This document shows, in pieces, positions 3,350 to 63,780 of a stretch of DNA of 64,000 bases. The notes under the pieces were generated by a model. That model made no database searches. It was given only the letters and a program-made list of their open reading frames with translations, and was not told the origin of the DNA. Position 1 is the stretch's first letter, and every line of letters begins with the position of its first letter. This stretch comes from Chloranthus sessilifolius (Eukaryota > Streptophyta > Magnoliopsida > Chloranthales > Chloranthaceae): contig CM037598.1 in assembly GCA_021018995.1 (NCBI GenBank), forward strand, positions 42,710,685-42,774,684. Reading direction: 5' to 3'. The position numbers were made by a program, and so were the translations under genes.

Positions 3350-3766
3350 TTGATCGATCGAAGTTTATTTTTGTTCGATCGAATACGATTTCGATTGATC
3401 GAGGTGTAAATCGACCGATCAAAATCACCTTGGCAGAAAGTCATTTTCCCTGTATTTTAAAAGTTTATTGAATTCGTTCGATCGAATTTACTTTCGATCG
3501 ATCGAATTTATTTTCGATCGGACGAAAGAAATTTTGTTCGACCAGAAAATTTTGTAGGCTTGACAAGCTCGATCGATCGAAAAATATTTGTTCGATCGAA
3601 TTTGAACATATCGATCGATCGAATTAAAACTCGTTCGATCGAAATGAGAGGCCCCTTTTTCCTAATGCTACTCTCGACCGATCGAAATGAGTTTTGATCG
3701 ATCGAAATCAAAGTGAATTCTTTATAAGTCGGATTTCGACCGATCGAAATGAATTCGATCGATCGA
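3350..3766. repeat. Palindrome array A1 (TCGA-N4-TCGA), upstream of extra ORF
   Basis: At least 15 copies of a 12-bp palindrome TCGATCGATCGA, its variant TCGACCGATCGA or the 10-bp form TTCGATCGAA. Examples start at 3350, 3374, 3391, 3411, 3477, 3494, 3514, 3537, 3569, 3591, 3611, 3634, 3674, 3694, 3736 and 3755. Within clusters, neighbouring centres are 18-23 bp apart, about two DNA helical turns. The flanks between sites are not conserved. The array lies between the chromodomain and the extra ORF. The same palindrome fills part of this element's LTR (6284-6689). Confidence 0.93.
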
Positions 3767-3774
3767 ATTTTGCA

Positions 3775-3786
3775 TATATATATAAA
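3775..3786 (+). promoter_or_regulatory. TATA-box candidate for the extra ORF of element A
   Basis: TATATATATAAA sits directly after palindrome array A1 and about 220 bp before the ATG at 4006. No other strong TATA is seen between pol and that ATG. If used, the extra ORF would have its own transcript with the array just upstream. Position and sequence only; no transcript evidence. Confidence 0.4.
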
Positions 3787-4005
3787 CCGCATTTTAAAGT
3801 TCATTTTTTTTTCAAAATTTTGGGGTTTTCGTTCGGGTTTTTGCATTGGAGCATCATACGAACAATCAATTGCGCTAGATCCTTTGAGGAATCGAATCCA
3901 AATCGCCTCAAAGTGGTAAACCTTTAAATTTCGATTCTTAATTTCTTGCCTTTGGTTGAAAATTTTCTTCTTTGATTAAAACCCTCATTTTGCTTTTCTT
4001 AGACC

Positions 4006-5428
4006 ATGGCACCTAAGAAGAAGGCTACCACTTCTAAAACCCCTACATCGAAGCGACCCAAGATCACACTGGGTCCTTCGCAACCACCAAAACCTCCACC
4101 ACCCCAACCACCTGCCGAGCAACCGGTTGCTCCGCAAACTCCCCAGCATGACCAACCAAGCGAATGGTGGGCCGACAAGGGTTTTGCCCATGTGTACACC
4201 ATCGATCCAGCCTTATTCGAGACACCCAATGTGCCCGGCATTGACGCTTAGGCACTTGAATTTAGGCAAGGCGGGATTGGATAATCTTCTCAAACCCCTT
4301 CATCAGTACTATTACCCGTGCCTCGTGCACTTGTTTTACCAAAAGATGTTTGATGGCCCTGACCCTAATACCGTTTGCACCAAAGTCAATGGGAAGACAT
4401 ATGTTTTTACCCACGGATTGGCTTGCCGAGCGTTGGAATGTTTTGACGGGTATGGCGAGGGGATTGACTTGTTACCCCCAAATCCCCCAAATTTGACCCA
4501 TACTTTTGTCACCGAGTGGATGACTGGGGGACTAGTTGCACCGGGTCGAGCCATTAGGCAAGCCCATTTGCAGAGCTATATGTGGATGCTTGACACAATC
4601 TTCAAGTGCAATCTCTACCCGATCCGCCATAAGATTGAGAGACTAGCGGTGTTGATGGAAGCCCTATTCGCGGCTTTTCAAGGTAAATGGTTTGATGCCG
4701 CCGCTATGATTTTTGAGGGAATCAAGCATGGGAGGAAGAAGCTATTGGCAGGGGCAGAAAAGCTCGAGGAGTATACACCGTATGCCAGTTTGGTCTCGGC
4801 TATGTTTGATGAGTACACTGTGACCTCCGTCCACAAGATCTCCTCCTGGGAGCCTAAGTCCTGTGACAATGTGGTGTTCTACACCTTTAAGCATTGGAGG
4901 AAGACCTATAACCAGCTGAAACCACATCTACAGCCAGCCCCTCAACCGCCTCCTGTCCCTCCTCAACCACATGATGCACCTGCTCAGGACGCACCACTAC
5001 CTGACCAACCTGCTCCTGAGGCTCTTGTCCCCGATCCGCCTGAGGTTATCCCTCCAGTTCACCAACCTTCCGACATACCGATGCCGCCAGTCCATCAAGC
5101 AGCCCCGATAAGCAATGAGATGTTGGCTGCTCTCATCCAAGAGAGCAAACGCTAGCTCAATCAACGCCTGGACTACTACGAGCTGCTCGTGGAGGATGTG
5201 TTGCATGCCATGTACCCTACTGAATATGCCCAGAGGATGGCGGCCATGATTGCGTGGGTATTCGGTGCTTCTACGGTAGACACTGCTGCTGAGGATCCAT
5301 GGCCTGATGAGATGACCAGTGGGGATCACACCGACGAGGAGCCGGAGGATGTAGTGGATCCTACTAGTCCGACGAATCCTGCTAGAGTGGCTGGAGCGTC
5401 TGGAGGAGCTGCTATTGGGGGATCATGA
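4006..5428 (+). pseudogene. Extra ORF downstream of pol, plant-transposon-protein-like (element A)
   Basis: Starts at ATG 4006 in good context (ACCATGG). It has a basic, Pro-rich N-terminus (MAPKKKATTSKTPTSKRPK, nuclear-localisation-like), then a globular core (LDNLLKPLHQYYYPCLVHLF, SYMWMLDTIFKCN, EALFAAFQGKWFDAAAMIF), a Pro-rich linker near 4930-5110, and an acidic tail. A frameshift near 4245 and an in-frame TAG at 5153-5155 break it. The core resembles the domain labelled 'putative plant transposon protein' in plant databases (from memory, moderate confidence); its biochemical role is unknown. A homologue lies at the same place in element B (30026-31463), sharing the WMLD-x(3)-KC-x-L-x-P and PYA-x-LV motifs. 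No transmembrane or signal sequence is seen, so it is not env-like. Confidence 0.75.
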
Positions 5429-5914: not shown

Positions 5915-6283
5915 AGAGGAATTAAATGCCTCATTTAGGTATTGCATTCAACACCTCAGTTATTGCTGATCATAGGGAGTTAAGAGAAAAGAGGGACAGA
6001 TTCGAGATTTAAATGTTGATTGCATACGAGAACAATCCGTTCTCGAAGCTTGTAGTGATCTAATTAGAGCGACGAACGAGCTGTTGTTCTTTTGGTAAAT
6101 CCAAGTCAGATCTAGAGGCTAGGATTAGAGATTTAGAGGAAATCAAGGGATGAAAATTTGATCGAGATCTTGAAATTATGTCGTTAACTGTTTCTACATA
6201 AATTTAGATCACGGGAGCTTAAGAAATCGAGTGTAACTTGATGTAGAGGGGGAAAACCCTTAAACGGGTGATTTCTGTTCATT

Positions 6284-6689
6284 TCAACCGATCGAAATTG
6301 AGTTCGATCGATCGAAATGGACTTAAAATGTGACAACTTCGAAGTATGAGGAAATTCATTGGATCAAAGTCAAATTTGATCGAATGAAATGGGTTCGATC
6401 GATCGAATCTCACACTCGATCGATCAAAACATATATAAGCAGGAACGTGGAAAAACCCTCTGTGAGAACTCGATCAATCAAAATACATTCGATCGATCAA
6501 ATTATGAATTTTTGACCGATCAAAGTAAGATTCGTTCGATCGAAATGTGTGATAGCTAAATTGCTTTTGGAAGATTCGACCGATCGACCGAAAGGGGATT
6601 CATTCGATCGAAGTAGGTTTGATTTTTTGGCTTCCAGGAGAGCTCGACCGATCGAATTTAGCTCTCGAAATTGGGATTCGATCGATCGA
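6284..6689. repeat. Palindrome array A2 in LTR A
   Basis: Same TCGA-N4-TCGA family as array A1. Sites start at 6284, 6304, 6376, 6395, 6416, 6470, 6489, 6512, 6534, 6576, 6603, 6644 and 6678. Paired sites are spaced 19-23 bp. N4 is TCGA or CCGA, as in A1, while the other elements use other N4 words. Between sites the sequence is unrelated. Confidence 0.93.
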
Positions 6690-8057
6690 AATTCCTAGAT
6701 TCAGAATTTTGGTAAGTTTTGACAGCGAGATTTTGAAGGGAGTTATCCTAACATGTTTTGCACTATTCTAATGAGTGAACATTGGATCTTATATTTTAGG
6801 TGACTTGGTATGGTATGATGAGAGGGCTAACCCAAACGGCGGTTTGAGCTAGTGCAGGTTAAGATCTTGAGGTAAGGAACACTTGATACCATGTGCATTG
6901 TTACGTTAACATCTGTGTGTTATGAGGTGATTGTTTCTTTGAATGGATTATACGTGTGGTTACGAATAGAATTTGGAAGGACATGGACATCCATACGTTC
7001 TCGATTCATGCATGAGTTGCGTAATCTTTCGAGATTCAATCTATTGTGTTGTGAAAATATCTTCACACTTCTTTCCGAGCTTTGATCTAAATTATAATTA
7101 TCACTTTACACGGCTATGAGCTATATGTACGCACTTCGATTTAAGGTTTTATGTGAATACCCAACCGGTACCGCGGCTAATCCGTACACCTTTATGCAAT
7201 GTGTTTTGTGACTCCTACCGCATGACTGTAAATATGTTCGGCCAAGTGTCCAACTTTATGGGACCTTGGATATATGTGAAAATGGTTCATATGAGCGACG
7301 ATGGTGGGTATTCCATCGGGGCCTTGAGGCTATAGCTCCTCATTCTATTACTTTAAGCATACCACTTTAAAATTTTCTTTTCTTGTATTGGAAGAAGATG
7401 TGGACCTATCTCTTTTGAAATTTTGAATAAGCTTTGTACCTATGTTTCATGCCATGATCATACACTGTGCATACGTCCCGATTATTCTGTTTCATTATGC
7501 CATACGATTTATGTTGCCGTTACAATATGCATGCTATGAGTTTTTCCTTACTGAGCTTTGATGAAGCTCGTTCTTCAACTATATGTCACAGGTTTAGGTG
7601 AAGGCGTTGACACCAGGATTTTCGAGAGGGAAGTTTCTGAGCTTGCTTCGGGGGAGGACTTGGAGGAGATTCACCCTGAGAGCTGCTTTCTTCGTACTAG
7701 GCCAGAGTAGGTTCGGCCCTAGGATTCAGGATGTGTGGTTTAACGTTGGTTATAAAGGATGTAAATTTTTTAGATGATTGTACTTCTTTTGGTGAACCAT
7801 GTTTCGGTAAGGTACGGTCCTTACCGGGGGTTCTTGTTGGTTCTTTTTCCATAAGGAATCATATGGAACTAGAACCGTCATTTTGAGATTTGATGAATAG
7901 TACTAGTTCTTTTTTTTACTTTGATGATTCATTGGATATGATTATGCTTTGTTTTTCGTTGCGCAACTGTACGTTAAGTGCTTCGTTCGGGGGCTCGGCC
8001 TTAGTGCCAACCCACTGACGGCACGAGCTTCGGGGTGTCGAAACTCGGGTTGTCACA

Positions 8058-22417: not shown

Positions 22418-22660
22418 TTCGAACAGAAAAATGCACTACAGAGTCCTTTTCGCAAAGAACCTATACTTTTCGCAAAGAACCTGAAACTCTGCGAAAAGGA
22501 ATAAAACTCCAGGCGTAGCATTCGAAGAGCATTTGAACTATTCGAAGAGAGGATTGAACTTTGCGAAAAGAAGAAAACACAATTCGAACAGAACCAGAAC
22601 ATTGCGAAAGGAGCTTCAAGAGTCACAACACTTTGCGAAAAGGCCCCTAAGCTGTGCGAA
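22418..22660. repeat. Phased TTCGAA/TTGCGAA array in LTR G
   Basis: Eleven sites in two forms: palindromic TTCGAA, and TTCGCAA in either orientation, usually within CTTTTCGCAAAG. Centres are at 22420.5, 22452, 22472, 22492, 22523.5, 22543.5, 22564, 22585.5, 22605, 22636 and 22657. Gaps are 31.5, 20, 20, 31.5, 20, 20.5, 21.5, 19.5, 31 and 21 bp, all close to two or three helical turns. The intervening sequence is not repeated. Confidence 0.9.
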
Positions 22661-22882
22661 GAGGCATTCTGGAGATTCGTAGCTTTAACAAGGGCAATTC
22701 AGTAATTTGTTACACGCGTCCCAATACATTTTAAAACCTAGGGACATTCCAGAGGGTTCTAAGCATGAAGCGAAGGAATATTCCACCCCATGTGAGCACC
22801 TAAAGAGGGAATAACTTGGCGGGAACTTCTAGAAACTCTAACAAACTTTCAAAATGCATAATAGAATTGATACCTTTTTCAC

Positions 22883-27358: not shown

Positions 27359-29817
27359 TGTAACAGCCCGGATTTCCATCTCCAGAAATCCGTGCCGTTA
27401 GGATCATACTCTGGATGATCCCGGATCGATCACACGTGTCCGCGCATATAGCGAAAGCTAGGTGGACACATCCGAGCAGCGGTAGTCTGAGTCAAACAAT
27501 TTCTACACTAAATACACGTCAACAATATTTAAATGTAAAGAAAAACATACACATTCCCAAAAAGGAACCAGGAAGAACCATCGGTGATGGACGTACATCA
27601 CCCAAACAATGGTTCCCGATAGTGGTTCCGAAATGGAATGTGGACTAACATAAACTAAATAAACGTAGAATCATATATGTATATACAAGGTGGCCACCAG
27701 GCACACAATAGTCCAAAAGATCAACTACGGATAAAACTTCTCACGGGCGTCCGTCTCCTGATCCTCCGCTTTCCGCCTCGGGATCCGGTGATAGTCCGGG
27801 TCACTCTCGTTGCAGAATGCATCGAACCTAAAAAGATTTCAGAAAGCGGGGTGAGCTACATCATAGCTCAATAGAAAAACCATCTAAATGAATTGAATAT
27901 GGATCATGCTATCTCATGAAGACAAATTCAGATCATGTACTCAAAACAAATCAGTTAAAAGCTGGGAACTTTATGCAAGATGTCAGATGTCATGCAGATA
28001 TATTATCAGAGTACTTAAAGTGTGTCTATTTAACTTAAGAAACTCCGTTATAGCACAGAGTAACAGAATGTCAGATAGGAAACCCCAACCAATCGTTCAC
28101 ATGAACAATTGTGAAAGTGCAACAATGCCTCATCTATGGAGTGCAATTGCTTAAGGATTACAAGCAGATGCACAAGTGTGCGAGCATCGGATATACGCGG
28201 GTCGGTGGGGATCATCTGGTTTAAATCATCAAATCACATACATATATACCTCACGGATCGGATAGCGAAAATCGAAGCGATTTGGGGATACGAATCGAGA
28301 AGCAAATCCAAGATAGCAGGAATTTATGATATGCATACATGCTTGTTAAAAACAGAAATCAGGGCACAGATATAAAATAAACATGAAATCATACTCAAAA
28401 GCAGTTTAGGTTGGTTTTCCCCTACCTCAGATCAGTTTATCTTCTAAGCAAATCCAAAGCTTTTTCGACGTGTCAGGGTTTATCCTATACCATAGGCACA
28501 GTACATTAAGTGTTAGGAGTGTCAGAGAATTACCCGGCACCACATCCGGGGTGTCTACTTTATAAAGTCAAGACAGACAAAAACAGGGTAAGTGATCGAT
28601 CACCAACCTCATTGATCGATCACCACCCACTGTAGATCGATCACCACCTTGGTGATCGATCACCAACCTGCTTATCTCTCTCTCAACACAGTCAAGGTTG
28701 ATCGATCACCACCTTGGTGATCGATCACCAACCCTCCTGTAGATCGATCACCACCTTGGTGATCGATCACCAATGCAATTTCAAAAACTCCCCCCTTCTG
28801 TCCACATCAATTTCTTATACAGATTGATCGATCACCATCCTCATTGTAGATCGATCACCACCTTGGTGATCGATCACCAACCCTCCTGTAGATCGATCAC
28901 CACCTTGGTGATCGATCACCAACTCCCTTGTAGATCGATCACCACCTTAGTGATCGATCTACAACTCGGGCAAGAACTTCCTAGCTTCTGGGGTCTCTGT
29001 TCCCCATAAGGCTTATACAGATTGATCGATCACCAGTCCTTGGTGATCGATCATAACCCTCGATGATCGATCACCACCCTATGGTGATCGATCACCAATA
29101 ACGAAAAAGTCATTAATGGAGTTCACCTCCCATCCATTTTTTATCTCCCTCCACTAATGGTTGTTCAATCACCATTAATACTTCATAAATACACCCTCTA
29201 AACTATCCTTTAACCCTATTTATCCTACACAACTCACCTTGTTCGTGGGTTCCTTGAGGTTCCGGCAATGACCCGAAAAGAGGGTCTCAAACCTAGATCT
29301 CGGAGCTCCTCCTCGATCCGGATCCGGCGAGAAGCTCTTCAGCTCTGGTTCGACAGATCAAGGCCTCTCACACCAATCTCAAACCCCAAATAACTCAATC
29401 ACCTTGGTCTAGCTACTCTAGCTTAGGAATCCCTCATCTTCACTCTTGCTAACCCTTTTCTTCTCTCTCAAAGGATCTCTTTAACACTTTCTTAGCACAA
29501 TCTCCAACCTATGGAGCAATTAGGGCAAGGGGATGAAGGAGAAGAAGAGTGGAAGTCTCTCCTCTCTTGTCTCCCTTCCTTCCTCTATAAGCTACCTCCT
29601 CACAGCAGAATTTATGTTTTGCCCTTGGTGCCCGCTCCGGTGTGAAGCATGAACACAGTTGCTTCCGCGCAACGTGTTCCACCTACCCTCTACACATCTA
29701 GGATCTAGATGAAATTGCACACGTGATCTCATCTCATCACGGTGCCACATTATTTAAACTAATATAACCCTAAAGTTTTTGAATGAACCTTGGATCACAA
29801 TGATCGAGGTCGTTACA
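27359..29817 (-). repeat. 3' LTR of element B
   Basis: 2,459 bp. The first ~340 bp on the + strand and the last ~600 bp are nearly identical to the other copy at 37043-39509, while the middle shows dozens of small indels at CAG/CTG/CG. It contains 19 phased palindromes. A TATA-like CTTATAGAGGAAGG lies on the minus strand near 29582-29595. Confidence 0.95.
28594..29095. repeat. Palindrome array B2 (TGATCGATCA) in 3' LTR of B
   Basis: Nineteen sites with core GATCGATC, starting at 28594, 28614, 28635, 28654, 28700, 28719, 28742, 28761, 28826, 28849, 28868, 28891, 28910, 28933, 28952, 29024, 29045, 29065 and 29086. In the middle (28826-28952) the gaps alternate 23 and 19 bp, giving a 42-bp tandem unit that holds one GGTGATCGATCACC and one TAGATCGATCACC. 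Elsewhere gaps are 19-23 bp. Confidence 0.95.
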
Positions 29818-30025: not shown

Positions 30026-31463
30026 TTAGAGAGATGTACACATATAAATGGCTAATAAGCTATAGTAGTATGGTAATACAGGGGGCATCGGATGGGCGGC
30101 GTCATCGAGCGTCGATCTGGCCGAACGCGAGCGGTGAATGATAGTCACGTGGATCCACCCGGTCTTGTGAGCGTGCGCGATCATCGGCGTGGGCGTCGTG
30201 TGGCATAAAGGTCTTTGCATGACTAGCTCATGCATACCAGCGTGATAGTCCGGGCGACGATGCATCTGTCTGAACGCCTCAACGCCATCCGGCCTCTCGT
30301 GGATGCGGTGGTTGCTCTCCACCAACTTCATGAAGCATAAGCGGTGACATTGCCGGAGGAAGGCGGGGAGGGGAGGGTGATGATGGTGATCGGCGTGGTG
30401 GAGCGAGGCTGGTCGGCGGATGGCTGGGGTGGTGGGTCCTGTGGTGGCTCGCCCTCTGTGGTCACGGCACCGGGTGAACCCTACCTTTCTGATGGGGAAT
30501 GGGCTCAGCCGCGCCCTCCTCCTCCTCAGGAAGACGCTTAACCAACAAGTTGTAGCTCTTTGTCCAGTCTTTCAGGTGAAAGACCTTAGTGTTGTTTTCC
30601 AAACGGGGCTCGTGGGGAGCCAAGACGTAGGCCTCGCGTAGGGCAGCATACTGCTCTACGAGCTTGGTGACGAGGCGTGCATAGGGGATCTGTTTCTTCG
30701 CTCCAGATCGCCCCTTCTCAGACATCAGGTCATTGGCATTTATGATGCCATCAATGACCAGATCTGCCATAGAGAACCAACGGTTCTCATAGGCGGAGAA
30801 TAGTGCTTGTTGCACTACTCCAGTCCGTGAGGACTTGTGCAGGAAAGGGTTGAGGGCACACTTGATGTAGGTATCAAGCATCCACAACCGGTCAGGTAGT
30901 TGGGCCCTAGAAATGGATTGGCCCCTACCGTGTTGGCCTTGGGTCATCTTGGTGACCACATCGGCATAGGGTACCTCCTTGACGTACGGAGGCTCGAGGC
31001 CACTGGTCTCGATGTACGCGGACGGGCATTGAAGTGCCGCCGCGACATGGAAATGGTTAAATTTATATTCAAGGCCATCGATGGTTGTGACGAGTCGATG
31101 GCGACTATCACCCCATTTGAGATTTTGAAAGAAAAGCCGTACAATACGTGGGCAATAATGGTCATGGAAGGGCGCGAGCAAGGGTTTAAGCCCTAGCTTT
31201 TGTATGTAACCCTTGGCCCAAGCCATTTCGGGTCGGTCCTCATAGAGTGAGGACACAAAAACGCATTCCGGTAGGAAGGTTTTGGAAGCCCACCACGGGT
31301 TGGGGACTTCACGCTCAATGGGGAGCGGCGCGGATGCGGGAACGGGTGGGGTAGAGGTCGAAACCGGTGCCATGGGTGGCATGGATGATTTGGAATAGAA
31401 GCGATGCAGATGAGGCAGATGTGGGTACCTTCTGTGAAGGATTCTTCGTATGCGTGGTCCCAT
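30026..31463 (-). pseudogene. Extra ORF downstream of pol (element B)
   Basis: Starts at ATG 31463 (ACCATGG context, MGPRIRRILHRRYPHLP), with an open frame to a stop at 30462. The core shows WWASKTFLPECVFV, LGLKPLLAPFHDHYCPRIVR, LWMLDTYIKCALNPF, QALFSAYENRWFSMADLVID and IPYARLVTKLVEQY, aligning with the extra ORF of element A (4006-5428). After the stop, a shifted frame (30026-30331, LVESNHRIHERPDGVEAF) resembles A's C-terminal helical part, so the original protein was probably longer. The core resembles the 'putative plant transposon protein' domain (recalled, not searched). No membrane segment, zinc finger or known catalytic motif is seen. It lies between palindrome array B1 and the polypurine tract. 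Confidence 0.75.
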
Positions 31464-32064: not shown

Positions 32065-32229
32065 TCAAGTGAACAGATGCGGATACTGTTCACGGATTTC
32101 GGTTGCTCTCTCCCAAGTGGCTTCGGCGTCTGAATGATTTCTCCACTTGACTAGTACCAGCGGGATTAATTTAGTCCGCAGGACTTGATGTCGACGATCC
32201 AAAATAGCAATCGGTTCCTCAATCGTCAT
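32065..32229 (-). pseudogene. Chromodomain (element B)
   Basis: The minus strand reads MTIEEPIAILDRRHQVLR, then TKLIPLVLVKWRNHSDAEA, then TWERATEIREQYPHLFT and a stop. This is the chromodomain fold expected at the end of chromovirus integrases. It lies one frame off the integrase frame, which stops at 32219, so a single indel near 32230 separates them. It would bind heterochromatic histone marks and target insertion. Confidence 0.9.
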
Positions 32230-33639: not shown

Positions 33640-34905
33640 AAATGCCACCTTTGCACTCTGGTGATCAAATGTGCCAATTGAGCTGAAGACTTCCTGCTCA
33701 AAGCATCCGCCACCACATTGGCTTTTCCAGGGTGATACTGGATGGAACAATCGTAGTCTTTTAAGAACTCCATCCACCTGCGCTGTCGCATGTTCAAGTC
33801 CTTTTGTGTAAACAAGTACTTTAGGCTTTTGTGGTCGGTGTAGATGTCAAATGTCTCACCGTATAAGTAGTGCCTCCAAATTTTCAGAGCAAAGATCACC
33901 GCTGCTAACTCCAAGTCATGAGTCGGGTAGTTCTTCTCATGTTCCTTCAGTTGTCTAGAGCCATATGCGATAACCTTCTTGTGCTGGTTGAGGACGCAAC
34001 CTAACCCACTATACGATGCGTCGCTGTAGATAGCAAAGCCTCCTCTGCCAGAAGGTATAGCTAGCACTGGTGCTGTAGTTAGACGCGTCTTCAATTCCTG
34101 GAAACTCTTCTCGCATTGTTCCGTCCAATCAAACTTAGCACTTTTCTTTGTGAGCTGAGTAAGCGGACTCGATAGTTTAGAGAATCCTTCTACAAACCGC
34201 CTGTAGTACCCTGCCAAACCAAGAAAACTACGGACCTCCATCCTTTGTCTTAGGCTGTTCCCAATTCACAACCGCCTCGATCTTTGTGGGATCTACCGTT
34301 ATACCCTTTGCGGAGACGATATGGCCTAAGAAACTCACTTGGTTCAACCAAAACTCGCACTTGCCGAGCTTTGCGTATAATTTGTGTTCTCTAAGGGTCC
34401 GCAACACCACATGTAGATGTTCTTCGTGTTCCTCCTTTGTCTTGGAATAGACAAGAATGTCGTCTACGAAAACAACCACCGACTTGTCCAAGTGTGGTTT
34501 AAATATATGATTCATCGTCCATAAATGATGCGGGTGCATTCATCAATCCAAATGGCATAACTAAGAACTCATAGTGCCCATATCTGGTTCTGAACGCTGT
34601 CTTCTCCACATCTTCAGTCTTGACCCGTAATTGATGGTAACCTGATCTCAAGTCAATCTTCGTAAAGAACCTCGCTCCTTGCAATTGATCAAATAGATCG
34701 TCGATCCTAGGAAGCGGGTAACGATTCTTAATCGTCAACTTATTCAACTGCCGATAATCAATGCATAAGCGCATTGAGCCGTCTTTCTTTCTGACAAACA
34801 ACACTGGCGCTCCCCAAGGAGACACACTTGGCGAATAAATCCCTTGTCAAGCGGTTCTTGCGCTTGTTCCTTCAACTCTTGCAATTCTGGTGCCATCCGT
34901 CACGG
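33640..34905 (-). pseudogene. Reverse transcriptase and RNase H (element B)
   Basis: RT motifs: [64 protein letters not shown] and the intact catalytic [13 protein letters not shown]. RNase [39 protein letters not shown] and [20 protein letters not shown], ending [11 protein letters not shown]. Frame breaks occur near 34840 (before MSPWGAP), near 34510 (a CTG codon reduced after ASFMD) and near 34240. Catalytic residues visible in the pieces are present. Confidence 0.94.
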
Positions 34906-34929
34906 AGCCTTAGAATCGGTTACGTGCTC

Positions 34930-35598
34930 GGAGCTAAATTAATTGCAAACTCAACCTCTCTAAGCGATGGTAATCCGGGCAATTCCTCGAAATACATCGG
35001 GATACTCACACGACGTGAATATCGGATAGCACATTTGTTTCTTCCCGTTGTTCTTGTAGAAAAGCCACATATCCGCTGCATCCATTCTTCATCATCTTTT
35101 CCGCCCGAATCGCGGATATCAACGGGGCCACCTTAGATTTTTCCCCAAGGAATTTAAATGATCGTCGCTTAGGTGGACGAAAAACCACTATCTTTCGAAG
35201 GCAATCCACACTTGCGCGGTATGCGGATAGCCAGTCCATTCCCATAATGACGTCAAATCCCTTCATATCTAACAGAATCAAATCTGCCTGTGTCTCATGT
35301 TCTTCCACTGCCACTATCACTGACTTGCACACGGTGAGTGCGTTCAGATATTACCGTGGGCCGACACGCCAAAATAAAGTCTAATTGTTCTGGAGTGGCA
35401 CCCAATTTCTTAGTAAATTGAGATCGTATAAAGGAGTGCGTAGAGCCTGGATCTATCAAGGCTCGTGCACTGTAAAAGCAAATGTCGCAACTCCTACACA
35501 AATTCAGTTCACCTATACGCCAAGTCCAGTGTTACTTCAAACGTTTAAAATATGCATGCATACATATATTATTTACATCATAATTACTCAATAATTTC
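34930..35598 (-). pseudogene. Retropepsin (element B)
   Basis: Minus-strand pieces at 35295-35501 (ALIDPGSTHSFIRSQF, with DPG in place of the usual D-S/T-G) and 35006-35332 (KGFDVIMGMDWLSAYRASVD) form an aspartic protease split by a frameshift near 35320. It follows gag after a short gap and precedes RT, the usual order. Pro for Ser/Thr at the active site could reduce activity or reflect the family variant. Confidence 0.82.
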
Positions 35599-35652: not shown

Positions 35653-36936
35653 TCAATTCATACCTTGGATGACATCATTCGATGTCAGAGCATCGGTCGC
35701 GGTGACGGCATAAGCTCGACCGTGGACTATTGGTCGAGATGATCTCTGTGTTGATACCGATCCTGACCGCTCCTTGCTCTCCTCAGGGCAATTCCTAACC
35801 AAGTGACCCATCTTGCCACACCTGAAGCATGCCCCTGTCTCTCTCCGGCAGTCCTCTGTCTTGTGTGGTTTCCCACACTTTGCACATATCGCGGCCGGAG
35901 TGAAGGATGAGACCCTTGAAGGTCCCTGTGTCACTGAGGCCCCGCTACCAGAAGATCCAGCTGGTCTGAATGATCTAGAAGGCGTAGGTGTTACTGCCCT
36001 CTGGTAGGAACTTGGACCCGAAGATATCGCCGGTCGAGGGTGCGTAGGGTATCTCGGAGGTCTGGAATATCTAGCCCTCTTGTTTTGCTCTGCATCCTGA
36101 GATTGCCCTTGGAATGGTCTCTCTCTCGCCTGCTTGTCTCTCCAAGAAAACTGCTTTTGATTCTCCTCTTCGGCTATGAGAGCCTTGGCCATGACTCCCT
36201 CATACGTCTCCATTTCCCACATGGCGACGTCTTTTTGTAGATTCTGTCTAAGGCCAAGTTGAAACTTTCTGGCTCTCATCAACTCTGTGGCTACATGCTG
36301 AGGAGCAAACCTAGCCAACCTGTCAAACTCCGCTCCATAGTCTCTCACCGACATGGCGCCTTGCTTCAACTCTATGAATTTCACTTCCCATTGGTGCCTC
36401 ACAATTTTCGGGAAGTATTTGTGGTAAAACACCTCCGTGAACTCCTCCCATGTCCAAGGAGTGTGAGGGAATTCTCTTTGTCGATTTTGTGACACCGACT
36501 TCCACCATGGTCCGGCGTCACCATCAAGTTTGAAAGTGGCCCAACGCACTTTCTCCTCATCACTGCATTGTAGTACCTCGAAGAGCTTTTCCATCTCTTC
36601 AATCCATCCTTCCGCCTCTATGGGATCCGTTTGACCCGAGAAGTTAGGAGGTCTCATTCTCCTAAACTCCGCAAATCCACCAGGCTGATGGTGTGGTCTA
36701 GCTGCCTGTTGAGCCAACGCAGCTGTTTGTTGAGCGACGTTGGTAGCTAATGCTTCCAACACCTGCTCCATCCTCTCCTCATTTCTTCTTCTTCCTCCTC
36801 TTGGTCCCACCGGAACCACATTTGGCTGCGAGAGAAATTCTAAACCCCGCGACGTGACCTCTGGCACATCCCTCAGGGGAATCTCTCTCTGTCCTGCTCT
36901 ACCTCCACTATGCCCTCCTCTGAACTTAGGGCCCAT
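35653..36936 (-). CDS. Gag polyprotein with CCHC zinc knuckle (element B)
   Basis: Open frame of 427 codons from MGPKFRGGHSGG. Residues about 95-260 form the retrotransposon gag core (MRPPNFSGQTDPIEAEGWIE, WATFKLDGDAGPWWKSV, FTEVFYHKYFPKIVRHQWEV, FIELKQGAMSVRDYGAEFDR). A Ser/Pro-rich linker follows, then a zinc knuckle CFRCGKMGHLVRNC (C-x2-C-x4-H-x4-C) near residue 372, preceded by a partial second knuckle (CAKCGKPHKTEDC). It packages element RNA in cytoplasmic particles. It is the only full-length element gene in the window without a break, and starts about 110 bp after the primer site. Confidence 0.95.
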   Translation of the reverse strand: MGPKFRGGHSGGRAGQREIPLRDVPEVTSRGLEFLSQPNVVPVGPRGGRRRNEERMEQVLEALATNVAQQTAALAQQAARPHHQPGGFAEFRRMRPPNFSGQTDPIEAEGWIEEMEKLFEVLQCSDEEKVRWATFKLDGDAGPWWKSVSQNRQREFPHTPWTWEEFTEVFYHKYFPKIVRHQWEVKFIELKQGAMSVRDYGAEFDRLARFAPQHVATELMRARKFQLGLRQNLQKDVAMWEMETYEGVMAKALIAEEENQKQFSWRDKQARERPFQGQSQDAEQNKRARYSRPPRYPTHPRPAISSGPSSYQRAVTPTPSRSFRPAGSSGSGASVTQGPSRVSSFTPAAICAKCGKPHKTEDCRRETGACFRCGKMGHLVRNCPEESKERSGSVSTQRSSRPIVHGRAYAVTATDALTSNDVIQGMN

Positions 36937-37022
36937 ACTGGTCTGTCATTGTAAAAACAACAACATTGATCAGTACATAGATTGTGAAAACAATCCTCTC
37001 TAAACCCGTAGTTCAACCTACT

Positions 37023-37042: not shown

Positions 37043-39509
37043 TGTAACAGCCCGGATTTCCATCTCCAGAAATCCGTGCCGTTAGGATCATACTCTGGAT
37101 GATCCCGGATCGATCACACGTGTCCGCGCATATAGCGGAAGCTAGGTGGACACATCCGAGCAGCGGTAGTCTGAGTCAAACAATTTCTACACTAAATACA
37201 CGTCAACAATATTTAAATGTAAAGAAAAACATACACATTCCCAAAAAGGAACCAGGAAGAACCATCGGTGATGGACGTACATCACCCAAACAATGGTTCC
37301 CGATAGTGGTTCCGAAATGGAATGTGGACTAACATAAACTAAATAAACGTAGAATCATATATGTATATACAAGGTGGCCACCAGGCACACAATAGTCCAA
37401 AAGATCAAAAGCAAAACTCGTCTACACTACGTCTGCTCTCCTCTCGCCTCGGCCTCGGGATCCGGCCGATAGTCCGGTCACTCTTGGGCATTGCAGCCTC
37501 AGAACCTAAAAAGATTTCAAAAAGCAGGGTGAGCTACATCATAGCTCAATAGAAGAAAAACCATCTAAATGAATTGAATATGCAGATCATGCTATCTCAT
37601 AATAGAAGACAAATCCAGATCATGTACTCAAAACAAATCAGTTAAAAGCTGGGAACTTTATGCAAGATGTCAGATGTCATGCAGATATATTATCAGAGTA
37701 CTTAAAGTGTGTCTATTTAACTTAAGAAACTCCCGTGACTGTATAGCACGGAGTAAACAGGAATGTCCGATAGGAAACCCCAACCAATCGTCGTTCACAT
37801 GAACAATTGTGAAAGTGCAACAATGCCTCATCTATGGAGTGCAATTGCGCCGAGGATTACAAGCAGGTGCACAAGTGTGCCAGGCATCGGATACCTGCCG
37901 TCGGTGGGGATCATCTGGTTTAAATCATCAAATCACATACATATATACCTCACAGATCAGATAGCAGAAATCAGAAGCAGATTTCAGGATACGAATCAGG
38001 AAACAGAAATCAAAGATAGCAGGAATTTATGATATGCATACATGCTTGTTAAAAGCAATCGAGACGATATAAAATAAACATGAAATCATACTCAAAAGCG
38101 TTTAGGTTGGTTTTCCCTACCTCGAGATCAGTTTATCTTCTAAGCAAATCCAAAGCTTTTTCGGCGTGTCGTGGTTTATCCTATACCATGACGCGATTAC
38201 ATTAAGTGTTAGGAGTGTCGAGAATTACGGCACCACATCCGGGTGTCTACTTTATAAAGTCAAGAGAATAAAAAAGCAGGGTAAGTGATCGATCACCAAC
38301 CTCATTGATCGATCACCACCCATCAGATCGATCACCACCTTGGTGATCGATCACCAACTGCTTATCTCTCTCAACACAGGTCAAGGTTGATCGATCACCA
38401 CCTTGGTGATCGATCACCAACCTCCTCAGATCGATCACCACCTTGGTGATCGATCACCAATGCAATTTCAAAACTCCCCCTTCATCACATCAATTTCTTA
38501 TACAGATTGATCGATCACCATCCTCATTGTAGATCGATCACCACCTTGGTGATCGATCACCAACCCTCCTGTAGATCGATCACCACCTTGGTGATCGATC
38601 ACCAACTCCCTTGTAGATCGATCACCACCTTAGTGATCGATCTACAACTCGGGCAAGAACTTCCTAGCTCGGGGTCTCATTTCCCCATAAGGCTTACTCT
38701 GATTGATCGATCACCAGTCCTTGGTGATCGATCACCAACCCTCAGTGATCGATCACCACCCTATGGTGATCGATCACCAATGACAGAAAAGCTGTCATTA
38801 ATGGAGTTCACCTCCCATCCATTTTTTATCTCCCTCCACTAATGGTTGTTCAATCACCATTAATACTTCATAAATACACCCTCTAAACTATCCTTTAACC
38901 CTATTTATCCTACACAACTCACCTTGTTCGTGGGTTCCTTGAGGTTCAATGACCCAAAAGAGGGTCTCAAACCTAGATCTGGAGCTCCTCCTCGATCCGG
39001 ATCCGTGAGAAGCTCTTCACCGGTTCGGATCAAGGCCTCTCACACCAATCTCAAACCCCAAATAACTCAATCACCTTGGTCTAGCTACTCTAGCTTAGGA
39101 ATCCCTCATCTTCACTCTTGCTAACCCTTTTCTTCTCTCTCAAAGGATCTCTTTAACACTTTCTTAGCACAATCTCCAACCTATGGAGCAATTAGGGCAA
39201 GGGGATGAAGGAGAAGAAGAGTGGAAGTCTCTCCTCTCTTGTCTCCCTTCCTTCCTCTATAAGCTACCTCCTCACAGCAGAATTTATGTTTTGCCCTTGG
39301 TGCCCGCTCCGGTGTGAAGCATGAACACAGTTGCTTCCGCGCAACGTGTTCCACCTACCCTCTACACATCTAGGATCTAGATGAAATTGCACACGTGATC
39401 TCATCTCATCACGGTGCCACATTATTTAAACTAATATAACCCTAAAGTTTTTGAATGAACCTTGGTTTCCGTGCCGGGCACGCGGATCACAGCAGTCGGG
39501 GTCGTTACA
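37043..39509 (-). repeat. 5' LTR of element B
   Basis: 2,467 bp, pair of 27359-29817. A TATA-like CTTATAGAGGAAGG (minus strand) lies near 39254-39267. Palindrome array B3 occupies 38287-38779 with the same site order as the other LTR, about 480 bp downstream of the TATA-like site in the sense direction. Confidence 0.95.
38287..38779. repeat. Palindrome array B3 in 5' LTR of B
   Basis: Copy of array B2: 19 GATCGATC cores flanked by GTG/CAC or TAG/CAC, spaced 19-23 bp. Site cores are unchanged between the two LTRs even where the intervening bases differ (for example CTGTAGATC versus ATCAGATC). Confidence 0.93.
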
Positions 39510-46555: not shown

Positions 46556-46807
46556 TCACTCTGGTGACTTGACTATCATGTCGTCGATGTATACCTCGAT
46601 TTCTCGATGCATCATGTCGTGGAATAGTACAGTCATAGCTCTCTGGTATGTTGCACCGACATTCTTCAACCCGAACGGCATAATACGGTAGCAAAAAGTT
46701 CCCCAGGGAGTGATGAATGATGTCTTCTCTCGGTCTGCCTCTGCCATCTTGATTTGATTATATCCAGAGAATCCGTCCATGAATGATACATCCTGTGCTT
46801 AGCAGTG
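46556..46807 (-). pseudogene. Reverse transcriptase, catalytic half (element F)
   Basis: MDGFSGYNQIKMAEADREKT, FCYRIMPFGLKNVGATYQRA, DMMHREIEVYIDDMIVKS: the YIDD catalytic motif is intact. The frame is interrupted at 46808-46812 by solo LTR E; the upstream half continues at 48606. A frameshift lies next to the junction (after ...TAKHRM). Confidence 0.93.
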
Positions 46808-47199
46808 TTATCTGATGAGCAGTGAAATATGGTGATATTTCACCCCTAAATACCTACATTTAGCTATACAATGAAGGCTATCTGATGAGAATTACTAGAT
46901 TTGAAGTGTTTCAGGTAAATACTAGCCAAGTGCAGAAAACAGCCCAAGAATTCTAAAAATAATGTCAAAACACTGCAACTTTGGGTCATCGAGAACTTGA
47001 TGTACCTTGCAGCTCAATTTGAACCATCCAGACGGCTGAATTATGAAATTGTCAAAACACAAACACTGTAGATATTTCTGTCAACTTTCTAACGCCGTAA
47101 GACTCATGTCAATCCGAGTTCGGAGTAGAAAGCTATGGCCAAAATACCAAAGCAGTGTCGGATGTAAAAGTGGGCTGAAATTCACGAAAATCTGGGAGG

Positions 47200-47331
47200 T
47201 CGATGCATCGACCCTTTTGCTCGATTAATTGAGGGGCAACAGTAGTCTAACACGGAATTGACTCTTTAAAGCAGATTTTTAGAGATTCTTTGCAGGGTTG
47301 ATGCATCGACCCTGACTTTTCGAGTTGGGAC
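47200..47331. repeat. Paired TCGA-N4-TCGA sites in LTR E
   Basis: Two pairs: TCGATGCATCGA at 47200 with TCGATTAATTGA at 47221 (21 bp), and TTGATGCATCGA at 47298 with the decayed TCGAGTTGGGAC at 47320 (22 bp). They lie just upstream of the TATA-like site at 47350. Architecture matches the chromovirus arrays with a different N4 word (TGCA). Confidence 0.75.
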
Positions 47332-55045: not shown

Positions 55046-55049
55046 TCTA

Positions 55050-59681: not shown

Positions 59682-62212
59682 TATGACAGCCCGGATTTTC
59701 GACACCTCGAAACTCGTGCCATCAGTATGATCATCTTGACCATGCCCCTTGGCTAAGCACGGAACACTAGTATATCAAGCAATATAAATGGACTGAAAAT
59801 GATAACAATGATTGCAGAAATAATTTACTCTTTAAATACTGATCAAAAGACGGTACTACCTTCATGCCCCTGCACGAATGGAGAACCGATCCGAACCATC
59901 GATGATCGTCGATCATCACAGATGGTTCGCCCCAAAAGAATAATCTCATAATTTAATTACATTGTTTAACAAAAACAAGGCTTGACATACCAAGCCGTAC
60001 CAAACAAGCTCACAAAAACTCTCAAAGATGCACAACGGAGTCCTCTAGAAGAAGTCCTCAGGAGGTGGCTCTAACTCGTCACCAGGCACAAGGTCCGAGT
60101 CACCAGGGTCAACGTCCCCTGAAGCCTCAGCAGCTGCTAATAACGGACCTGCGACGTATAGTCTAAAGGGTGAGCTACATCCTAGCTCAATAGGGAACAA
60201 AACACAGTGAACATATAGATTAAAACCTCACATATATTCCATGATATGCTTATGCATGATGTATCTATGCAGTTGCTGAGAAAAACAGTTGAAAAGGAAT
60301 CACATTTTGCTGGTAGTTTACACATGTCTTTTAATTTATCATGAATGGCACTGAATAGGCCTAAAGCAAAACTTAACCTTTCAACTTAAGTAATCCCCGA
60401 GCAATATAGCATCGAGCCCCGTTGAGATACCCTTCATCGTCATCTATATAGACAGTTTTTAAACGTATTCCCTGGGAATACAAATAGTACCCAAGCCCCT
60501 TTCCCCTGGGGATCGATGGTTGGGTTTCAACTTATCTCAATTCAACACCCCTGGGGTGTGCTTCTTGTCTGAGATAAGCCTCATCAGCTTACGATTTCGC
60601 CGCAGACGGTCCACGGATATCACCTTGCGCCACGTCGTGGGTATCCCGCCACGTCGGTGGGGTATCCTATCAAACCTCAAATAACGAAAATATCAGGTGC
60701 TTTACATATAGTTATTTACTGTGTAAGTGTGGTATCTTATATTAGTTAGACCTTATCAGACATTATTCAATCTTAGATGCATCCCTGGGATGTATCTATT
60801 CACTTGCATCACAACTGATGCTCTTATTACTTCACTTTCCTCATCCCCTAGGGATGGCTCATTATTAGATGCTATTATTGATGTCACATACACACACTTT
60901 TCACAAAACTTTAAGCAATAAAACAGTTTTCAGTTTGATTCTATATCACTACATACATGCTCTTGCAAATTAAAGTACATGTTCAAGGTGTTCCCTACCT
61001 CAAGTCTCTGATAAGTCACGCATCAAGGTCCCACGTGGCTCCTTGTGCCCAAGTTCACACGTACCACCTATGGTACAACATAACACATGCAACACATCAT
61101 TAAAGATGTAACAAGGAAGGTCCAAGACCCTCCAAGAATCTCCAAGTCAAACTCAAAAGTCAACAAAAATTGGCACAGTCGATTAATCGAACTCCAAGGT
61201 CGATCAATCGAATCTGGTTCGATTAATCGACTCCCAAAATCGATTAATCGAAATTCAAAGTCGATTAATCGATTCGCAAAATCGATTAATCGAGATTCCC
61301 ATTCGATTAATCGAATCCCCATTCGATTAATCGAAATTCTCTACTCCATCCATTCGATTCTCAATTCGAGTAATCGAATTCCCAAAATCGATTAATCGAT
61401 CCCAATTTGATTAATCAAAATTCGAAATCGATTAATCGAAATCCCATTTCGATTAGTAGATTTCCCCAGGTTCTCTTTCCTCCATCCACTGGAGTCCACT
61501 GGAGGTTCTCAGTCGATTAATCGACTCCAAAATCGATTAATCGAAAATCAAAGTCAATTAATCGAAACTCAGTTCGATTAATCGAATTCGGGCTCTTTGA
61601 CTTTTCAACTTCCTGGCGAAAATCGATTAATCGAATTGGCCAGATTCAGCCACTTTTTGGGCTGCTCTTCCCAATCTTTTCCTACTCTTTTTTCTTTATT
61701 TTTCTAAGCCTTTATCCTATAATTTAAACCATTCTTAACTACAATGAACTCACATAACTTATGCATTGAATTTACAAGGATTTTACCTTCAATCAATTCC
61801 AAATTGATTAGATCTAATGGTTGGAAAGGCTAGGGTTCCAACTTTTGGCTCTAACGGAAATCCCTCGCTTCGAATCCGGCCTTAAATGCTCGAATCCCCC
61901 CTTCCAATCAGCTGCAATAACTCCTCTCTCTCTCTCTTTCTCTTCTTTACTCTCCTTCAACAACAAAAACAATTGATTTTAAGGTTATTAAACCCTTTTA
62001 TCTCTCCTCTAGCTTGTGTGTTGAGCACATAACCAGAATAGGTGTATGTGACTCTGAATTTCGTCACGTTCCACACATTCACTTAATTTCTCACATCTCA
62101 TCCGTTCATCATATCCTACATCATCTAGTGAACTCCTACATGGTCAAACCTATGACCAGTCGGGCACAGATCCCGAGGTCACTGTTTAACGCGAAATTTT
62201 CAGGATATTACA
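59682..62212 (-). mobile_element. Solo LTR S with 5-bp target duplication GACGT
   Basis: 2,531 bp; begins TATGACAGCCCGGATTTTCG (+ strand, original TG changed to TA) and ends GGATATTACA, flanked by GACGT at 59677-59681 and 62213-62217. The start aligns with the LTR ends of A and B, so it is a minus-sense chromovirus LTR. It contains 18 phased palindromes. A minus-strand TATA-like GAGATAAAAGGG lies at 61993-62004. Confidence 0.9.
61179..61634. repeat. Phased TCGATTAATCGA array in LTR S
   Basis: Eighteen sites (13 with exact CGATTAATCG) starting at 61179, 61200, 61219, 61240, 61261, 61282, 61303, 61323, 61366, 61388, 61407, 61428, 61449, 61513, 61533, 61554, 61574 and 61623. In the first eight the gaps are 21, 19, 21, 21, 21, 21 and 20 bp. 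Most later gaps are 19-22 bp or close to multiples of 21. Spacers are unrelated. Confidence 0.96.
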
Positions 62213-62217
62213 GACGT

Positions 62218-63780
62218 AGTTATATCTATGTAACTTATGGACTAACTTGTATTGAATAGAGCCTTGTTTTGGGCCCTAAGAGGCACTCACATCCTTAATA
62301 GGATTGTAGGAGTCTTAATAAAGGTAACGGTCATTATCATTGTGTCCGAGAGACTAAAAAATTATAAGTTCACGTCCTCAATCGCCTAAATCGAATGTCT
62401 ACGTTAAAATATATCATTAATCCAATTTTAGTTTTAAAAGAAAAATATAGTCTGAGAACTATCAATCTTGACTAGTTTAAGTCCCATCTCGGCCTATCAA
62501 GGTTTCAGAAGAAAGAAGAAGTAGAAAAAGAATCAATCTCGACTGATCGAAGTTTCATCTCGACATGTCGAAATTTTAGAAGAAATTAGAGGCATAGTTG
62601 ATCTCGACTGGTCAAGTTCCATCTCGACATGTCGAGATTCCAGAGGGAAACAAAAGAGAGTCAATCTCAATTGGTTGAGTTCCATCTCGACCTGTCGAGA
62701 TTAGAGAACAGAAAGAAGAAAACATAAAGAAAACCAATCGGTCGAATTTGGATTTTGACCTGTCGAGCTCAAAAAGGAAAATTTGATGAAAGGGCAACCT
62801 CGACTGGTCGAATTGGATTTCGATCGGTCGAGATTACCCAAAAGAGGATGAAAAAGCCTTATCCAAACTCGACTGGTTGAGTTTGTATCTCGACCCGTCG
62901 ATTTTCATAGAGAAGATAAATCTTGGTTGGTCGAGATTGAATCTCGATCTGTTGAGATTAGTTATTTAGGAACAAGTCGAGTTTGGCAGCAAATCAGAGA
63001 TTTCCTTCTCTCTCAATTATAATTAGGGTTGTTTTAGGGTTTTCATTTTAAGTAAGCTAAATAATCTATGATGGATTGAGGGGCACCCAACCGTTGAAGC
63101 GTGAACAATGATTTTACGATAGTTCGGGTTGACGTGGATCGATGGTCGGAGCGTCGATTTTGCTCGAGTATTCTCGCAAATAACTTCCTTTACAACAGAA
63201 TATGTCGTAGTGATGAGGAACCTCGTTGGTGGGTGATTGAGCTCTAGAAAAGAATGTTCGGATCACCGCTATGATGGTGGTCCAACTCATGGTTTTGCTA
63301 GGGTTGTGGATCTCGTTTAAGGAAGAAGAAGACGGTGAATGCGGGTGGTGATTGGATTGCATTTTTACAGCGAAAGAATAATGCGAAATTGAGAGAGCCC
63401 AAGAGGGAGAGAGAAAATTTTCTTTCTCTCAAGACTCGTTTGTATATATATATAAGAGGTAGGTAGAGAGAGAGTCCAGTTAGAAAAATTGACTTGCCAA
63501 TAAGGTAGGAGTCCATAAAGACTCTAATTGATTGCAAATCAATCCTATTAATGATGAGATTTAATTGTCCTGGTTGCTTAAGACAATAGGTCTCTTCGGA
63601 TTCGATTATCATCTTTGGTGCAAATCAAATCTTATTTCAAAAATTTCTTTATTTTAATTGTGTAGGCTATGATAAGTGCCCCGCCTATCTATCACCATAA
63701 CACAAGTCAAAAGGAACTCGAGTCATAACACATACTAAATATACTAATATAAGAATATAAAATACATTATACTATTACAG
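62218..63780 (-). repeat. Chromovirus-type LTR D, part 2
   Basis: Continues LTR D after solo LTR S; the outer boundary is a guess. It holds paired palindromes (62539-62955) and a TATA-like run at 63442-63455 (on the minus strand CTTATATATATATACAAACG), about 490 bp upstream of the array in the sense direction. A CT/GA-rich stretch flanks it. Confidence 0.5.
62539..62955. repeat. Paired TCGA-N4-TCGA palindromes in LTR D
   Basis: Seven pairs. The first member is usually CTCGACTGGTCGA and the second ATCTCGACATGTCGAGAT or CTCGACCTGTCGAG. Starts: 62539/62560, 62604/62624, 62667/62687, 62734/62755, 62800/62820, 62869/62890 and 62923/62944. Within-pair spacing is 20 or 21 bp in every pair; pairs are 63-69 bp apart except the last (54 bp). 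Confidence 0.93.

What the first reader, a model, noticed from the sequence alone, without database searches (positions are those of the whole stretch)
3350..62955. Family-specific palindrome arrays with shared helical phasing across most retroelement families
Seen: seven or eight element families here each carry their own short palindrome in arrays, and the word differs between families but is constant within one. Chromovirus LTRs use TCGA-N4-TCGA with N4 = TCGA/CCGA (A), TTAA (S), CATG/CTGG (D), or TGATCGATCA (B). G uses TTCG(C)AA and E uses TCGA-TGCA-TCGA. Centres are 19-23 bp apart (two turns; 31 bp in part of G), while spacer sequence is not conserved. Known: constant spacing with free spacers is typical of arrays bound cooperatively on one DNA face. 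VANDAL transposons pair fast-evolving VANC proteins with family-specific short motifs to escape silencing. Inference: these arrays are sites of a diversifying recognition system, element-encoded or host, acting in anti-silencing, self-regulation or host repression. I know of no description of this for plant Ty3 elements.
Basis: partly seen in the sequence, partly recalled or inferred. Interest (0 to 1): 0.93.

Follow-up and report, generated by a model that had tools for sequence, protein, structure and literature searches.

The report
Self-addressed promoter palindromes in plant retrotransposons
Several families of jumping genes in this plant genome each carry their own short mirror-image DNA word, repeated about every two turns of the helix, beside an extra gene of their own, which suggests that this extra gene makes a protein that reads the word and controls that family only.

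Summary
The arrays are real and genome-wide. TCGATTAATCGA occurs 241,617 times in the window's genome, against 55 for the reversed word; two other words give 64,441 v 79 and 14,269 v 10. Neighbours are mostly 19-23 bp apart (85 of 133) and spacers are near background.

The new point is the partner. In elements A and B an array lies just upstream of a post-pol ORF, and a second array of the same word lies downstream (in B, in both LTRs). The two ORFs are homologous (33%), in or near Pfam Transposase_32. Of 38 ORF copies examined, 35 have an array upstream, and each ORF clade has its own word. The ORF is under purifying selection (median dN/dS 0.06-0.29). The module occurs in chromovirus, Athila-like and Ty1/copia elements.

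Best reading: the ORF encodes a dimeric DNA-binding regulator of its own and the LTR promoter, working like foamy-virus Tas or VANDAL VANC. Binding is not shown. Arrays at both positions were already described in copia Sireviruses (PMC2829016), so this is a new variant. Homology to VANC's DUF1985 was tested and not supported.

The parts
5..3200 (+). Element A: pol (RT, RNase H, integrase, chromodomain-like end), 5' part outside the window
   Evidence: blastn 68% to element B pol; Pfam RVT_1, rve (below cut-off), SH3_Tf2-1; the end matches B's chromodomain stretch at 69%
3349..3766 (.). Element A internal palindrome array, half-site TTCGATC, 15 sites, mostly 19-23 bp apart
3773..3787 (+). TATA-like box starting 13 bp after the centre of the last palindrome of A's internal array
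   Evidence: sequence
4006..5155 (+). Element A extra ORF (Transposase_32-like). Broken by a frame change in this copy; the N-terminal and domain pieces were read separately and not joined
6281..6690 (.). Element A downstream array (putative 3' LTR), same word as the internal array
   Evidence: LTR status is inferred because the partner LTR lies outside the window
27359..29793 (-). Element B 3' LTR (2435 bp, 93% identical to the 5' LTR)
28592..29097 (.). Element B 3' LTR array, half-site GGTGATC, 19 sites
28556..28568 (-). TATA box (CTTTATAAAG) starting 32 bp after the last palindrome centre in B's 3' LTR
30462..31463 (-). Element B extra ORF from its first likely ATG, 333 aa, open; remote Transposase_32 relative
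   Evidence: 120 other genome copies scored at 82-97% identity
31694..31891 (.). Element B internal array, same word as its LTR arrays, between pol and the extra ORF
32068..35308 (-). Element B pol, ending in a chromodomain (PF00385, 31.5 bits, cut-off 25.1)
35653..36945 (-). Element B gag
   Evidence: Pfam Retrotrans_gag, Ty3_capsid, zf-CCHC
37043..39465 (-). Element B 5' LTR; a tRNA-iMet-type primer site (recalled motif) follows it
38286..38779 (.). Element B 5' LTR array, 19 sites, TATA box starting 33 bp after the last centre
61179..61634 (.). Family S array, half-site TTCGATT, 18 sites
62488..62956 (.). Family D array, interrupted palindrome CTCGAC-NN-GTCGAG, 14 sites at <=3 mismatches
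22418..22661 (.). Family G array, TTCGAA / TTTGCGAA words at 20 and 31 bp steps
46604..47309 (.). Claimed family E: only about three TCGATGCATCGA-like sites; weak

Best explanation
Each array is a promoter-proximal operator for a protein encoded by the element itself, the Transposase_32-type ORF between pol and the 3' LTR. The protein most likely binds as a dimer (palindromic half-sites of 6-7 bp), many dimers in line on one face of the helix. It acts on two promoters: an internal one just upstream of its own ORF (autoregulation), and the LTR promoter that makes the genomic RNA. Because each family has its own word, the protein serves its own family only, or non-autonomous kin that carry the word. 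The sign is most likely positive: activation or removal of silencing. Each retroelement word listed here holds one or more CpG, so binding may also be sensitive to or protective against methylation. SHOWN: words, two-turn spacing, positions, ORF homology, purifying selection, clade-word match. INFERRED: that the ORF product binds the word, that it dimerises, that the arrays are promoters, and the sign of the effect.
For: (1) Adjacency: 35 of 38 ORF copies examined have a dense one-word array upstream: 19 of 20 PF20167 hits, 7 of 8 A relatives, 6 of 6 B relatives, the window's A and B, and L018; misses L026, L054 and the remnant in L017. (2) Specificity: in the 20-locus table each of the 19 has 5-11 sites of one word and none of the other eight, except single stray matches in L037, L038 and L042. 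On a tree of 33 of these ORFs (L017, L026, L028, L032, L054 left out) the seven words need 6 changes, the least possible; shuffled mean 19.6. (3) Two separate arrays of one element share the word in 5 of 6 families looked at (A, B, C1, C2, C4), while spacers match across the two arrays at 0.25-0.35 against 0.25-0.28 background. (4) The word stays constant in the A clade down to 69% protein identity, median dS 1.33. (5) The ORF is constrained: median dN/dS A 0.10, B 0.06, C1 0.16, C2 0.29. (6) TATA-like boxes start 10-40 bp after the last palindrome in 16 of 43 arrays, against 6% of random points. (7) The ORFs begin with a basic stretch in A, B and C1 (+5 to +7 in 25 residues; only +2 in C2). 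(8) The module occurs in three element lineages.
Against: No binding data. No recognised DNA-binding domain: Pfam gives only Transposase_32 over its cut-off, and that not for A, B or L018; a solved-structure search with the ORF alignment found nothing better than E 0.29; the fold model was useless (pLDDT 36). By the pattern used, no TATA-like box follows B's internal arrays (0 of 7), C2 arrays (0 of 5) or A's downstream array, and only 3 of 13 C1 internal arrays have one. Family C3 shows no array in the 3 kb downstream of its ORF. Clade-word congruence alone could be common descent. B2 and C2 words are not clean single clades on the tree, because B1 and C4 nest in or beside them. All copies come from one genome; no relative was found elsewhere.
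Confidence: 0.55

Rival explanations
1. The arrays are sites for host transcription factors (stress or developmental). The extra ORF is an unrelated structural or envelope-like protein that merely needs a promoter, so both promoters of an element use the same host factor.
For: LTR repeats bound by host factors are the usual case for plant retroelements (general knowledge). The Sirevirus paper recovered mainly stress-factor sites in the PLACE database for its palindromes (PMC2829016, section 9).
Against: At least seven words, one per ORF clade, would need several host factors, each adopted by both promoters of one lineage.
Confidence: 0.22
2. The palindromes act as RNA: transcribed arrays fold into hairpins that feed or dodge small-RNA silencing. 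Clusters of LTR palindromes in maize Sireviruses are small-RNA hotspots.
For: Reported for maize Sireviruses (Bousios 2016, not held; known here through passages of PMC10760457 and PMC5311732).
Against: Two-turn spacing (85 of 133 at 19-23 bp) is a double-helix property not needed for RNA pairing. A fixed word, rather than any palindrome, is kept. Some arrays lie just upstream of a TATA-like box (16 of 43). Not tested with RNA data; it could still be a side effect.
Confidence: 0.1
3. The arrays are CpG-dense nucleosome or methylation elements whose exact word does not matter beyond CpG and symmetry.
For: CpG observed/expected is 0.81-3.07 in 11 arrays against 0.65 in the 17-stretch sample.
Against: Family words are specific over 6-7 bp per half-site and persist at high synonymous divergence.
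Confidence: 0.07
4. Simple tandem duplication of a chance palindrome, spread by copy number, without function.
For: TRF finds 42-bp higher-order units in B and S; L019 in the sample is a plain repeat of about 29-30 bp.
Against: Spacers sit near background while cores do not; two separate arrays per element share the word; arrays sit at the same place in 35 of 38 ORF copies.
Confidence: 0.03

Closest known systems
Repeated motifs (RM) of Ty1/copia Sireviruses, Bousios et al. 2010, PMC2829016 (passages, sections 9 and 10 read)
   Same: Family-specific palindromes in high copy number, clustered in the LTR upstream of a TATA box and, in the nine ENV-bearing elements with RMs, upstream of the ENV-like gene. 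Usier's GTCGGACGTCCGAC is close to C1's ACGGACGTCCGT, and Tnd-1's ACAATCGATTGT to C4's TCAATCGATTGA.
   Different: There the motif was called Sirevirus-specific, with a CGG-CCG core in all but Tnd-1, and no binder was named in the parts seen. Here the same layout is found in chromovirus and Athila-like Ty3 elements with other cores, and is tied to a homologous ORF whose clades match the words.
VANC proteins and their motif arrays in Arabidopsis VANDAL transposons, Hosaka et al. 2017, PMC5735166 (abstract and Results read); Sasaki et al. 2023, PMC10398659 (abstract read)
   Same: Element-encoded protein; family-specific short motifs at high density in non-coding parts of the element that encodes it; fast divergence of both.
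   Different: VANDALs are DNA transposons. VANC21's YAGTATTAY is not palindromic and is arrayed in one orientation. VANC carries DUF1985/DUF287; no homology to the ORF here was detected.
Foamy virus transactivator Tas (Bel1), e.g. PMC4929722 (abstract read) and PMC8670036 (start of abstract in a search listing)
   Same: Element-encoded regulator that acts on the LTR promoter and on an internal promoter (its place just upstream of the tas ORF is recalled).
   Different: Animal retrovirus; sequence homology not tested here; whether Tas sites form such arrays was not looked up.
Additional ORFs of plant LTR elements: Athila and Tekay aORFs in sunflower (PMC11728184, passages); Retand TRP28 ORFs with family-specific tandem repeats (PMC11963269, passages and Discussion)
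   Same: A partial Transposase_32 match in a sense 3' aORF of an Athila element, with predicted nuclear localisation; for Retand, a DNA-binding, regulatory role is proposed for post-pol ORFs.
   Different: 'palindrom' has 0 occurrences in PMC11728184, and no word-ORF clade link is reported in the passages seen of either paper. Retand ORFs are mainly antisense.

Membership tests
Sirevirus repeated-motif system (window elements A and B) | Ty1/copia pol | tested here: not met
   Ty3 pol; B ends in a chromodomain
Sirevirus repeated-motif system (clade C1 elsewhere in the genome) | Ty1/copia pol | tested here: met
   PF07727 RVT_2 E 2e-50 upstream of L028; a 20-residue RNase H end shared by L027 and L031; other C1 copies not tested
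Sirevirus repeated-motif system | Palindromic arrays in the LTR upstream of a TATA box and upstream of the post-pol ORF | tested here: met
   B: both places, TATA after both LTR arrays. A, C1, C2, C4: both places with the LTR inferred; TATA-like box after the downstream array in C1 and C4, not in A or C2
Sirevirus repeated-motif system | CGG-CCG core | tested here: inconclusive
   Met in C1 (ACGGACGTCCGT); not met in A, B, C2, C3, C4
Pfam PF20167 Transposase_32 | Score over the curated cut-off of 45 bits | tested here: inconclusive
   Met for the C1, C2, C3 representatives tested (54-65 bits). Not met for A (17-18 bits), B (12 bits) and L018 (no hit), which are joined to them by BLASTP, hmmsearch and tree
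VANC / VANDAL anti-silencing | DUF1985-bearing protein | tested here: not met
   hhalign of 15 ORFs against 14 DUF1985 domains of the same genome: probability 0.3%, E 0.19; no DUF1985 hit in Pfam scans
VANC / VANDAL anti-silencing | Protein binds the motif and removes DNA methylation | not testable with these tools
   Needs binding and bisulfite data
Chromovirus (A and B) | Chromodomain at the end of pol | tested here: met
   B: PF00385 31.5 bits, cut-off 25.1; A by 69% identity to that stretch
Foamy virus Tas-type switch | Element-encoded regulator acting on the LTR and on an internal promoter | not testable with these tools
   Layout agrees; activity unknown

The most novel reading that the evidence does not exclude
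The so-called envelope-like or additional gene of many plant retrotransposons, in copia and Ty3 lineages alike, is the element's own transcription factor. It drives itself and the LTR through a private palindromic address, so that co-resident families form mutually blind regulatory channels, and protein and address diversify together. This would unify Sirevirus motifs, Athila ORFs and chromovirus extra ORFs as one ancient module.
Probability: 0.42. Interest if true: 0.92.

Novelty: new variant of a known kind. Interest (0 to 1): 0.78.

Why it matters
The functions of plant retrotransposon env-like and additional ORFs are called unknown or debatable in the passages seen (PMC11728184), and no binder of the Sirevirus palindromes is named in the parts of PMC2829016 read. 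A tight match between ORF clade and palindrome word gives a direct, cheap test for both: express the ORF and ask whether it reads the word beside it. If true, it explains how many related families stay separately regulated in one nucleus, adds a self-encoded promoter switch to plant retroelements, and offers a set of natural sequence-specific binders with known targets.

Tried and rejected
E as an array family: about three sites, not accepted. Homology of the ORF to VANC's DUF1985: a shared hairpin-helix look led nowhere in profile comparison. Fold of the B ORF with A as its only partner: pLDDT 36, not used for any fold search. Relatives outside this genome: none in the 5.8-billion-protein set for B (3821 candidates) or L030 (300 candidates), none in viral contigs for L030. 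Six array words in the literature: 22 papers, of which the 15 listed are bacterial or animal studies by title (7 not seen). Two fixed B1/B2 differences in the ORF stretch compared (A97E, K116R) beside a change of outer flank (GGTGATC to ATTGATC) are too few to argue from. Helical phasing of distances >=28 bp: P 0.11 with a free period. Genome counts for the C1 and B words could not be obtained (C1; B: 111, 128; all unanswered). A wider random sample of 80 stretches was planned and dropped. The C3 downstream array was not found in 3 kb. The plant species was not identified (15 large contigs, 2.17 Gb).

Full report
CHECKING THE OBSERVATION. The window lies in a 2.17-Gb genome with 15 large contigs. 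Perfect 12-bp palindromes that are not pure A/T number 58 against a shuffled mean of 15.8, and they cluster in a way none of 20 shuffles does. Arrays A, B, S, D and G are present where claimed; E is not convincing. Within arrays, core positions are nearly invariant and spacer positions near background (the core figure is helped by site selection). Neighbour distances fall at 19-23 bp in 85 of 133 cases over 12 arrays, seven from the window and five from elsewhere; in 38 of 41 distances up to 32 bp of TCGATTAATCGA among the first listed places on contig C1; and, for TCAATCGATTGA, in 31 of 34 distances up to 35 bp at 21-23 bp, 28 of them exactly 22. Longer distances are in phase on average, but not beyond doubt.

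GENOME SCALE. Exact counts against the reversed word: TCGATTAATCGA 241,617 v 55, TCAATCGATTGA 64,441 v 79, TTCGATCGATCGAA 14,269 v 10. Six of those 17 hold such arrays, with five words; two others hold plain tandem repeats; one shuffle of each holds none.

ANATOMY. Element B is complete in outline on the minus strand: LTRs of 2.4 kb at 93% identity, gag, pol with a chromodomain, then an array, an open ORF of 333 codons, and the 3' LTR with its own array. Element A, cut by the window edge, has the same order: pol, array, TATA-like box, an ORF (broken by a frame change in this copy), then a downstream array. The two ORFs share 33% identity over 225 residues and fall near Pfam Transposase_32, below its cut-off.

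THE ORF AND ITS WORD. A search of the genome with that Pfam model had 13,856 first-look candidates and scored 150, all over the cut-off; searches with the B and A ORFs had 46,724 and 46,503 first-look candidates, 121 and 132 scored (first-look numbers are not confirmed copies). I fetched 20 of the 150 PF20167 hits, picked for spread in length and model range, with 1.4 kb upstream. Nineteen have an array of 5-11 sites of one word, and that word follows the ORF clade: ACGGAC (13 loci, clade C1), GTCGATT (4, C2), GCCTCG (2, C3), written as half-sites. The exception, L026, has lost homology upstream of the ORF. Of the A relatives, 8 of 132 scored were fetched; 7 carry the A word and L054 has no array. 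Of the B relatives, 6 of 121 were fetched; all six carry a B word, in two forms differing in the outer flank. L018 from the arbitrary sample adds an ORF 37% identical to a C2 ORF with the word GTCAATC (C4). The remnant in L017 has no array by the same criterion. In all, 35 of 38. On a tree of 33 of these ORFs (L017, L026, L028, L032 and L054 left out) the seven words need six changes, the minimum; B2 and C2 are not clean clades by themselves.

TWO ARRAYS, ONE WORD. Downstream of the ORF a second array of the same word was found in A, B, C1 (3 sites, L046), C2 (4 sites, L047) and C4 (L018), and not in C3 (L048, 3 kb). Between the two arrays of an element, cores agree at 0.89-0.96 and spacers at 0.25-0.35, with background 0.25-0.28. 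Only in B is the second array proven to be in the LTR. Ordinary reverse transcription does not copy an internal array into an LTR (general knowledge), so a shared word with unrelated spacers points to a common reader.

PROMOTER POSITION. A TATA-like box begins 10-40 bp after the last palindrome in 16 of 43 arrays (6% at random points). By group: A internal 6 of 8, A downstream 0 of 1, B LTR 2 of 2, B internal 0 of 7, C1 internal 3 of 13, C1 downstream 1 of 1, C2 0 of 5, C3 2 of 2, C4 2 of 4. Copies within a family are not independent, and the pattern misses weaker A/T boxes.

LINEAGES. C1 sits in a Ty1/copia element where tested: PF07727 RVT_2 at E 2e-50 in the stretch upstream of L028, and a 20-residue end of the same RNase H in L027 and L031. 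C2 and C4 share an integrase end of the Athila type (that name is recalled from its sequence; Pfam gave no hit; L042 and L018 are 52% identical there). A and B are chromoviruses. C3 was not placed. So the ORF-plus-array module spans copia and two Ty3 lineages. The ORF evolves under constraint, median dN/dS 0.06 to 0.29 over 99 pairs with computable dS above 0.05 (single pairs up to 0.56).

MECHANISM. The economical reading is a self-encoded, family-private promoter switch. A palindrome implies a two-fold symmetric reader; a 20-22 bp step puts readers on one face; two sites of action suit a regulator of its own gene and of the genomic promoter. I rate the element-encoded reader at 0.55, and within it activation or anti-silencing as likelier than repression, because selection on the element favours expression and because the words keep CpG in a CpG-poor background (0.81-3.07 v 0.65). 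Host-factor reading is the main rival.

WHAT IS KNOWN. Bousios et al. 2010 (PMC2829016) reported palindromic repeats in Sirevirus LTRs ahead of a TATA box, and ahead of the ENV-like gene in the nine motif-bearing elements that have one. That is the same architecture, described as Sirevirus-specific and without a known binder in the parts I read. The C1 clade looks like a member of that kind. What this work adds is the extension to Ty3 lineages, the identity of the partner ORF as one homologous family in both superfamilies, and the clade-by-clade match of ORF and word. VANC (PMC5735166) is the functional model, but a homology test failed. The absence of earlier reports rests on nine searches of an open-access library, with most subscription papers missing.

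Noticed in passing
window 49930-50361 (-): A G-patch domain (31.5 bits, over cut-off) overlapping the protease-like region of a Ty3 element at 44-51 kb; an RNA-binding module next to the protease.
   Followed up: no
L019 3173-4123: A tandem repeat of about 29-30 bp whose unit holds the palindrome GCACCTAGGTGC (28 sites at <=1 mismatch); unlike the retroelement arrays, its spacing is nearly fixed.
   Followed up: partly
L022 3754-4267: Four palindromes exactly 171 bp apart, likely a 171-bp satellite.
   Followed up: no
genome G000: DUF1985, the VANC domain, has 4,046 first-look candidates here, 150 scored over the cut-off; VANC-like transposons may be common too, and their own target arrays were not looked at.
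   Followed up: partly
window 20718-21926: A long stretch open on both strands, made of 18-bp repeats (KPxxxPEPxx / GSG type), beside the G array.
   Followed up: no
window 13015-13331: A 35/69-bp A/T-rich tandem repeat outside any retroelement recognised here.
   Followed up: no
window 54085-54212: A 48-bp tandem repeat with TTGCGCC / TGCGCA words, perhaps another palindrome array.
   Followed up: no
L010, L021: A further word, CTCGCTCGAGCGAG, in arrays with 21-22 bp steps; its element and ORF were not identified.
   Followed up: partly
L059-L062: A B subfamily whose word differs from B only in the outer flank (ATTGATCGATCAAT instead of GGTGATCGATCACC) while the ORF stretch compared differs at only two fixed residues.
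   Followed up: partly
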